From: Desulfurococcales archaeon
GTDB taxonomy: Archaea; Thermoproteota; Thermoprotei_A; Sulfolobales; AG1
Reading direction: 5' to 3'
NCBI GenBank assembly: GCA_009903825.1
Contig: WYEN01000081.1
Span: 1 to 39,274, forward strand
DNA: 39,274 nt
Positions within the stretch are counted from its first letter, which is position 1. Every line of letters starts with the position of its first letter. Shown piece by piece: positions 21,161-21,620 of the stretch. The position numbers and the translations under genes were made by a program. Under the pieces are notes generated by a model. That model was not told the DNA's origin. It saw only the letters and a list, made by a program, of their open reading frames with translations, and searched no databases.

Positions 21161-21242
21161 TAATCATCAGATGTTCCAGCCATCATCATATATCAGAAGA
21201 CCCTCTTTTCATCCTCTAAATAAATAAATATTCTTCCAGTAA

Positions 21243-21251
21243 AAATTTTAA
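21243..21251 (+). promoter_or_regulatory. TATA-like element of the incomplete tRNA gene
   Basis: AAATTTTAA at 21243-21251 lies about 28-30 bp before the first tRNA-like base (21279), close to the usual distance in archaeal tRNA genes. Confidence 0.5.
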
Positions 21252-21278
21252 TCTCTGAACAATATTATTATATTGAGT

Positions 21279-21340
21279 AGCCGGGTCGTCTAGCGGCCAA
21301 GGATGCGGGGCTCTGGACCGCCACCGTCTCTCCCGGGTTC
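21279..21340 (+). tRNA. Incomplete tRNA-Gln(CTG)-like gene: possible 5' half of a split tRNA, or a pseudo-tRNA
   Basis: Visible parts are acceptor 5' strand AGCCGGG (21279-21285), D-arm GTCT...GGAT with GG in the loop, 26G, anticodon stem 5' strand CGGGG, and loop CTCTGGA (anticodon CTG at 21313-21315). Up to about 21319 the sequence looks like a normal crenarchaeal tRNA-Gln. After that the 3' anticodon strand should be CCCCG but reads CCGCC. Only the beginning of a T-arm (CCCGGGTTC, 21332-21340) follows; the T-stem 3' strand and acceptor 3' strand are absent, and ATCAATCTGATTTTTT takes their place. A TATA box and a T-run frame the unit. Either it is a 5' half with a GC-rich trailer for trans-splicing, or a decayed or recombined tRNA. 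Confidence 0.5.
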
Positions 21341-21341
21341 A

Positions 21342-21620
21342 TCAATCTGATTTTTTCTCACATCTCTCTAGATAATCATTGATACAGTCATAATAATTAG
21401 CTAGATAATGATATCCCTCTGAGATCTTTTCTAACACCTCTGTACATGGAAGATTATATTCTTTTGATATTCTAATTGTTTTTCTAAGAATCTTCATTCC
21501 CTCACTTGTTGGAATAAGATTTTTATCAAGATATTCTCTAGATATACCTATCATACTTAGAAACCTCAGTACCTCATTAAATTTCTCACATAAAGTCTCT
21601 AACTCAACATCTCTCTTCAA
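21342..21620 (-). CDS. Small helical protein of unknown function
   Basis: 92 residues, all helical in appearance, with three cysteines. No domain is recognised. The TTG start at 21620 has GTGAT a few bases upstream. The gene ends directly at the tRNA-like unit, so the two transcripts converge and overlap. The protein could be real or a chance frame; its charged, helix-forming composition favours real. Confidence 0.5.
   Translation of the reverse strand: MKRDVELETLCEKFNEVLRFLSMIGISREYLDKNLIPTSEGMKILRKTIRISKEYNLPCTEVLEKISEGYHYLANYYDCINDYLERCEKKSD
21350..21356 (+). terminator. T-run after the tRNA-like unit
   Basis: GATTTTTTC at 21349-21357 would end a short RNA of about 75 nt. The same bases encode lysine codons of the small convergent gene, so they may instead simply be coding. 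Confidence 0.35.

What the first reader, a model, noticed from the sequence alone, without database searches (positions are those of the whole stretch)
21243..21357. Candidate split (trans-spliced) tRNA-Gln(CTG): 5' half with its own promoter and terminator
The tRNA-like sequence is sound from the acceptor 5' strand through the anticodon loop, but the 3' anticodon strand is wrong and no acceptor 3' strand follows. Instead there is a GC-rich trailer (GCCACCGTCTCTCCCGGG) and a T-run. A TATA-like box sits at tRNA-promoter distance. Split tRNAs with GC-rich complementary tails are known in Nanoarchaeum, Caldivirga and some Desulfurococcales. The T-arm-like CCCGGGTTC in the trailer is the main argument for a degenerate or recombined tRNA instead.
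Basis: partly seen in the sequence, partly recalled or inferred. Interest (0 to 1): 0.75.

Follow-up and report, generated by a model that had tools for sequence, protein, structure and literature searches.

The report
A glutamine tRNA in two pieces
In this heat-loving archaeon one of the two glutamine tRNAs is encoded as two separate half-genes whose tails match each other exactly, so the halves can pair, be cut and be joined; related genomes show that the same tRNA is split in many members of this group.

Summary
Confirmed, and larger than reported. Window 21279-21316 is the 5' half of tRNA-Gln(CTG), with a TATA-like box at -38 and a T-run behind it. Its 3' half lies on another contig (C118:29322-29376, minus strand), 11 kb or more from any contig end. 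The 5' trailer CCGCCACCGTCTCT is perfectly complementary over 14 nt to the 3' leader AGAGACGGTGGCGG. The junction fits a canonical bulge-helix-bulge; cutting at 37/38 gives a 73-nt tRNA-Gln(CTG), which ARAGORN recognises and which differs at 3 positions from the genome's intact tRNA-Gln(TTG). No intact Gln(CTG) was found. A second species of the genus has both halves in related neighbourhoods with a different helix sequence: 8 of 14 pairs changed on both sides, all still Watson-Crick. At least 22 of 214 genomes of the order carry a trans-split tRNA-Gln, always at 37/38, and in twelve of them one 3' half serves both isoacceptors. Both splicing-endonuclease subunits and RtcB are present. Split tRNAs are a known kind. 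Split tRNA-Gln(CUG), its conservation across whole families and its apparent recurrence were not found in the papers held. Expression and splicing remain untested.

The parts
21279..21316 (+). tRNA-Gln(CTG) 5' half, nucleotides 1-37 in tRNA numbering: acceptor 5' strand, D arm, anticodon 5' strand, anticodon CTG
   Evidence: joined to the 3' half it gives a 73-nt tRNA that ARAGORN calls tRNA-Gln(ctg)
21318..21331 (+). trailer CCGCCACCGTCTCT, perfectly complementary to the 3' half's leader (on G000:C118)
   Evidence: 14/14 Watson-Crick pairs; 8 of 14 pairs changed on both sides in the sister species
21311..21317 (+). 5' strand of the BHB: CTCT (21311-21314) of the central helix and bulge GGA (21315-21317); inferred cut after 21316
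   Evidence: canonical BHB in all 35 half pairs examined
21241..21248 (+). TATA-like box AAAAATTT, 38 nt upstream of nucleotide 1
   Evidence: score 6.7 against a mean of 6.3 for the genome's tRNA genes; 4% of random windows reach it
21351..21356 (+). T-run, likely transcription terminator of the 5' half
   Evidence: sequence only
21165..21219 (-). C/D box sRNA gene (sR20/sR3-like), divergent neighbour of the 5' half; the same sRNA sits beside the 5' half in all six genomes of the family
   Evidence: below Rfam gathering scores but E about 1e-5 and boxes conserved

Best explanation
A split, trans-spliced tRNA-Gln(CUG). The two halves are transcribed from separate loci, each behind its own TATA-like box. 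The 5' trailer pairs with the 3' leader over 14 bp and, with the anticodon stem, forms a canonical bulge-helix-bulge. The heteromeric (alpha-beta)2 tRNA-splicing endonuclease cuts in both bulges (GG^A and AG^C), and RtcB ligates nucleotides 37 and 38 into a 73-nt tRNA-Gln(CUG). Shown: both halves, complementarity, BHB fit, absence of a detectable intact copy, both enzymes, coevolution in relatives. Inferred: transcription, cleavage, ligation and essentiality.
For: 3' half at G000:C118:29322-29376; joined product folds as tRNA-Gln(ctg); 14/14 complementarity; canonical BHB in 35 of 35 half pairs; no other Gln(CTG) in the genome. In the sister species both halves lie in related gene neighbourhoods with a changed but perfectly paired helix. 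Across 10 genera cognate trailer-leader duplexes average -35.7 kcal/mol against -22.4 for non-cognate ones; 0 of 20000 permutations reach this. Promoter-like boxes before both halves. EndA catalytic and structural subunits and RtcB.
Against: No RNA data. The own genome is in 126 contigs and 95% complete, so an intact copy in a gap is possible, though pattern searches find none in the sister genome (97%) or in two single-contig relatives either. Folded alone, the own junction also has an alternative register about 5 kcal/mol more stable than the canonical BHB, because of the AGAGAG repeat. The promoter scores are only modestly above background.
Confidence: 0.95

Rival explanations
1. A decayed or recombined tRNA gene, or the att remnant of an integrated element, without function.
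For: The trailer is followed by CCCGGGTTC, like a T arm. The genome has tRNA fragments left by integrating elements (C71, C91, C107, C108).
Against: Those fragments are 3' pieces beside a shared element end, with an integrase gene by the intact tRNA where tested; this one is a 5' piece without these. The 3' half, the exact complementarity and the compensatory changes need selection. No other Gln(CTG) was found.
Confidence: 0.03
2. An intron-containing tRNA broken apart by misassembly of the draft genome.
For: 126 contigs; many relatives have a short intron at 37/38 of tRNA-Gln.
Against: Both halves lie at least 11 kb inside their contigs. The sister genome shows the same separation in related neighbourhoods. 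In the single-contig genomes G010 and G012 the halves are about 267 kb and at least 46 kb apart.
Confidence: 0.01
3. The halves have a role other than making tRNA, such as stable tRNA-fragment RNAs or decoy attachment sites.
For: A C/D box sRNA gene is always beside the 5' half in this family; split tRNAs have been proposed to protect tRNA genes from integration (Randau and Soll, as cited in PMC3218864).
Against: The conserved parts are exactly those needed for BHB splicing and for the tRNA.
Confidence: 0.01

Closest known systems
[quoted passage not shown] 2011, PMC3218864)
   Same: same broad archaeal group; split at 37/38; canonical hBHBh' and, in A. pernix, a 14-bp GC-rich stem; separate promoters
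   Different: different tRNA; halves directly adjacent there, on separate contigs here; not conserved across a family there
Split tRNA-Lys(CUU) of Staphylothermus (Chan et al. 2011, PMC3218864)
   Same: two separate halves, conserved in two species of a genus with one pair-preserving change (G-U to G-C)
   Different: joined at 30/31; other isotype; halves about 4.5 kb apart
Split tRNAs of Nanoarchaeum equitans, including tRNA-Gln(UUG) and the two tRNA-Glu that share one 3' half
   Same: trans-splicing of distant halves; sharing of one 3' half by two anticodons, as in relatives G003, G005, G012, G022, G048 and genus g37
   Different: its tRNA-Gln is UUG and joined at 32/33 (PMC3218864, Table 1); reduced symbiont genome
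Split and tri-split tRNAs of Caldivirga maquilingensis
   Same: free-living crenarchaeon; halves shared between isoacceptors
   Different: Gly, Ala and Glu tRNAs (PMC4390854); no Gln

Membership tests
archaeal split (trans-spliced) tRNA | 5' and 3' halves at separate loci that together make a complete tRNA | tested here: met
archaeal split (trans-spliced) tRNA | complementary trailer and leader at the junction | tested here: met
   14/14 bp; covariation in relatives
archaeal split (trans-spliced) tRNA | bulge-helix-bulge at the exon junction | tested here: met
   4-bp helix CTCT/AGAG, bulges GGA and AGC; an alternative register has lower energy in isolation
archaeal split (trans-spliced) tRNA | no intact gene for the same tRNA | tested here: met
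   the draft is 95% complete
archaeal split (trans-spliced) tRNA | own promoter for each half | tested here: met
   TATA-like boxes at -38 and -36; by sequence only, modest scores
archaeal split (trans-spliced) tRNA | heteromeric splicing endonuclease and ligase in the genome | tested here: met
   both EndA subunits; RtcB
archaeal split (trans-spliced) tRNA | half transcripts and spliced mature tRNA detected | not testable with these tools
   needs RNA
element-generated (att) tRNA fragment | 3' tRNA fragment at the end of an integrated element with an integrase | tested here: not met
   the feature is a 5' half next to a C/D sRNA and a conserved small gene; the real att fragments look different
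intron-containing tRNA (cis) | both exons contiguous in one gene | tested here: not met
   different contigs, each half at least 11 kb from contig ends

The most novel reading that the evidence does not exclude
tRNA-Gln is a hot spot of tRNA splitting: across this order it has been broken several times independently at exactly 37/38, and in the window's family the break is tied to a neighbouring C/D box sRNA gene. In G002 and G004 the sRNA directly abuts the 5' trailer on the same strand, so half and sRNA may come from one transcript. An intron that hosted an sRNA gene could thus have been the route from a spliced to a split tRNA.
Probability: 0.15. Interest if true: 0.75.

Novelty: new member of a known kind. 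Interest (0 to 1): 0.6.

Why it matters
A 2014 review (PMC4033280) counts 29 trans-spliced tRNA genes in seven genomes. Here at least 22 more genomes have a split tRNA-Gln, all joined at 37/38. In one family it is in all six genomes held, with most of the pairing helix changed between two species of a genus; in another genus (g8) one of four genomes with readable genes is split while its sisters are intact. That gives what look like old and young splits of the same tRNA in one order, so the route by which a tRNA gene comes apart, long debated, can be followed step by step. The tRNA finders used here miss these genes, so CAG decoding would look incomplete in their annotation.

Tried and rejected
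Search for the predicted leader CCCGGGAGAGACGGTGGC: not present apart from the feature itself, because the helix is displaced. The Rfam tRNA model does not see either half. Reading the T-arm-like CCCGGGTTC as a tRNA remnant: it lies outside the helix, next to the end of a convergent small gene. Element-made tRNA fragments: real in this genome but different. C/D sRNAs inside the near-adjacent tRNA-Gln arrangements of G040, G042, G017 and G067: none found. Synteny of the split G010 halves with the intact genes of its genus: no clear shared neighbours. The window's organism could not be named: records of its own genome may be left out of the named collection.

Full report
What is there. Window 21279-21316 reads AGCCGGGTCGTCTAGCGGCCAAGGATGCGGGGCTCTGG, positions 1 to 37 (tRNA numbering) of a tRNA-Gln with anticodon CTG, followed by ACCGCCACCGTCTCTCCCGGGTTC and a T-run. 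tRNA finders report nothing here. Searching the window's own genome (G000, 126 contigs, 95% complete) with this DNA gave three hits: itself, an intact tRNA-Gln(TTG) on C105, and a match to its trailer on C118.

The missing half. The C118 locus, read on its minus strand (29376 to 29322), is AGAGACGGTGGCGGAGAGAG followed by CCCCCGTGACCGGGGTTCGAATCCCCGCCCGGCTA. Its first 14 nt are the exact reverse complement of the 5' trailer CCGCCACCGTCTCT. Joining G37 to C38 gives a 73-nt tRNA that ARAGORN calls tRNA-Gln(ctg), different from the intact tRNA-Gln(TTG) only at nucleotides 19, 35 (the anticodon base) and 45 of the joined sequence. The junction fits the textbook BHB: CTCT/AGAG flanked by the 3-nt bulges GGA and AGC. 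In isolation a register using the second AGAG is about 5 kcal/mol more stable, a caveat that does not apply to most relatives, whose central strand is GGAG. The genome has no other Gln(CTG) that could be found: 45 tRNA genes or pieces pass the Rfam cut-off, none of them Gln(CTG), and pattern searches for Gln 5' and 3' parts return only the split pair and the TTG gene.

Promoters and enzymes. A motif learned from 39 tRNA upstream regions of this genome finds AAAAATTT at -38 of the 5' half and at -36 of the leader start of the 3' half, at the usual tRNA distance; 4% of random windows reach such a score. The genome encodes the catalytic EndA subunit (C3, 102 bits; best solved relatives 3p1z and 3ajv chain B) and the structural subunit (C99; best 3p1z and 3ajv chain A), so the (alpha-beta)2 type, and RtcB.

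Relatives. In G001, the only other genome of the genus held, both halves exist on different contigs. The 3' halves lie in the same gene order (homologues up to 89% identical), and the 5' halves share part of their neighbourhood, with local rearrangement. The trailer of G001 is TCACAACTGCCCTCCC, its leader GGGAGGGCAGTTGTGA: aligned from the BHB, 8 of 14 pairs have changed on both sides and all remain Watson-Crick. This is the strongest evidence for function.

Survey. The order was scanned for Gln 5' parts (214 genomes), and the context was read in the families other than f5 and f11. Trans-split tRNA-Gln with a verified complementary 3' half occurs in 22 genomes: all 6 of the window's family f1, all 8 of f8, all 7 of genus g37 in f2, and G010 in f6, whose readable congeners G020, G039 and G047 are intact. 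All 35 half pairs fit the 4-bp, 3+3-nt BHB at 37/38. In g37 (7 genomes), G003, G005, G012, G022 and G048 one 3' half serves both the CTG and the TTG 5' half. In G031, G063 and G069 the 3' half that serves TTG has GAAG instead of GGAG or AGAG, matching CUUU of the TTG anticodon loop at least as well. Three of the g37 genomes appear, by identical contig positions, to be the public MAGs CALKCU01, CALJEN01 and JAOAKA01. Near-adjacent halves, about 100-730 nt apart, occur in G042, G017, G067, G040 and G170 and may be long introns or adjacent units such as tRNA-Asp of Aeropyrum. Counts are lower bounds: 5' parts with more than one or two mismatches were not seen, and f5 context was not read systematically. 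That the splits are independent in the different families is inferred from the scattered distribution; no tree was built.

Statistics. With one 5' half per genus (10 genera), cognate trailer-leader duplexes average -35.7 kcal/mol against -22.4 for other-genus pairs; none of 20000 permutations is as good.

Neighbour. An sR20/sR3-like C/D box sRNA (21165-21219, minus) lies beside the 5' half in all six f1 genomes: divergent upstream in G000 and G001, directly abutting the trailer on the same strand in G002 and G004, some 35 nt downstream in G003 and G005. It was not found beside the halves of the other families tested. Whether it is co-transcribed or has anything to do with the split is open.

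Comparison. Split tRNAs are known from Nanoarchaeum, Caldivirga, Aeropyrum, Thermosphaera and Staphylothermus (PMC3218864, PMC4033280, PMC4390854). The only split tRNA-Gln in those papers is Nanoarchaeum tRNA-Gln(UUG), joined at 32/33. Full-text searches found no split tRNA-Gln(CUG) and no family-wide conservation of a split tRNA, but subscription journals and tRNA databases were not available. All sequence-testable membership criteria are met; transcription and splicing are not shown. Hence: a true new member of a known kind, unusual in its breadth.

Noticed in passing
window 21165-21219, minus strand; L086, L089, L091, L093, L095: C/D box sRNA gene (sR20/sR3-like) beside the 5' half in all six family genomes, on different sides and strands; in G002 and G004 it abuts the 5' trailer on the same strand.
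   Followed up: partly
L198 (C71:1-6700), L197 (C91), L199 (C108), L200 (C107): Integrated elements of about 6-15 kb in tRNA-Gly and tRNA-Arg genes: archaeal phage integrase next to the tRNA (C91, C108), 3' tRNA fragment behind a shared ~60-nt element end; the one on C91 carries an N6 DNA methylase/Eco57I-like protein and a helicase.
   Followed up: partly
L087 (G001:C3:50379-50470): tRNA-Gln(TTG) of the sister species has a non-canonical intron in the anticodon arm, whereas the window's genome has it uninterrupted.
   Followed up: no
L114 (G042), L119 (G017), L122 (G067), L120 (G040): tRNA-Gln halves only about 155-730 nt apart in these genomes, with complementary GC-rich ends: long introns or adjacent split units like tRNA-Asp of Aeropyrum.
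   Followed up: partly
window 21342-21620, minus strand: Small conserved gene (92 aa, no Pfam match) convergent with the 5' half; homologues in the 5'-half neighbourhoods of G001 and G002.
   Followed up: partly
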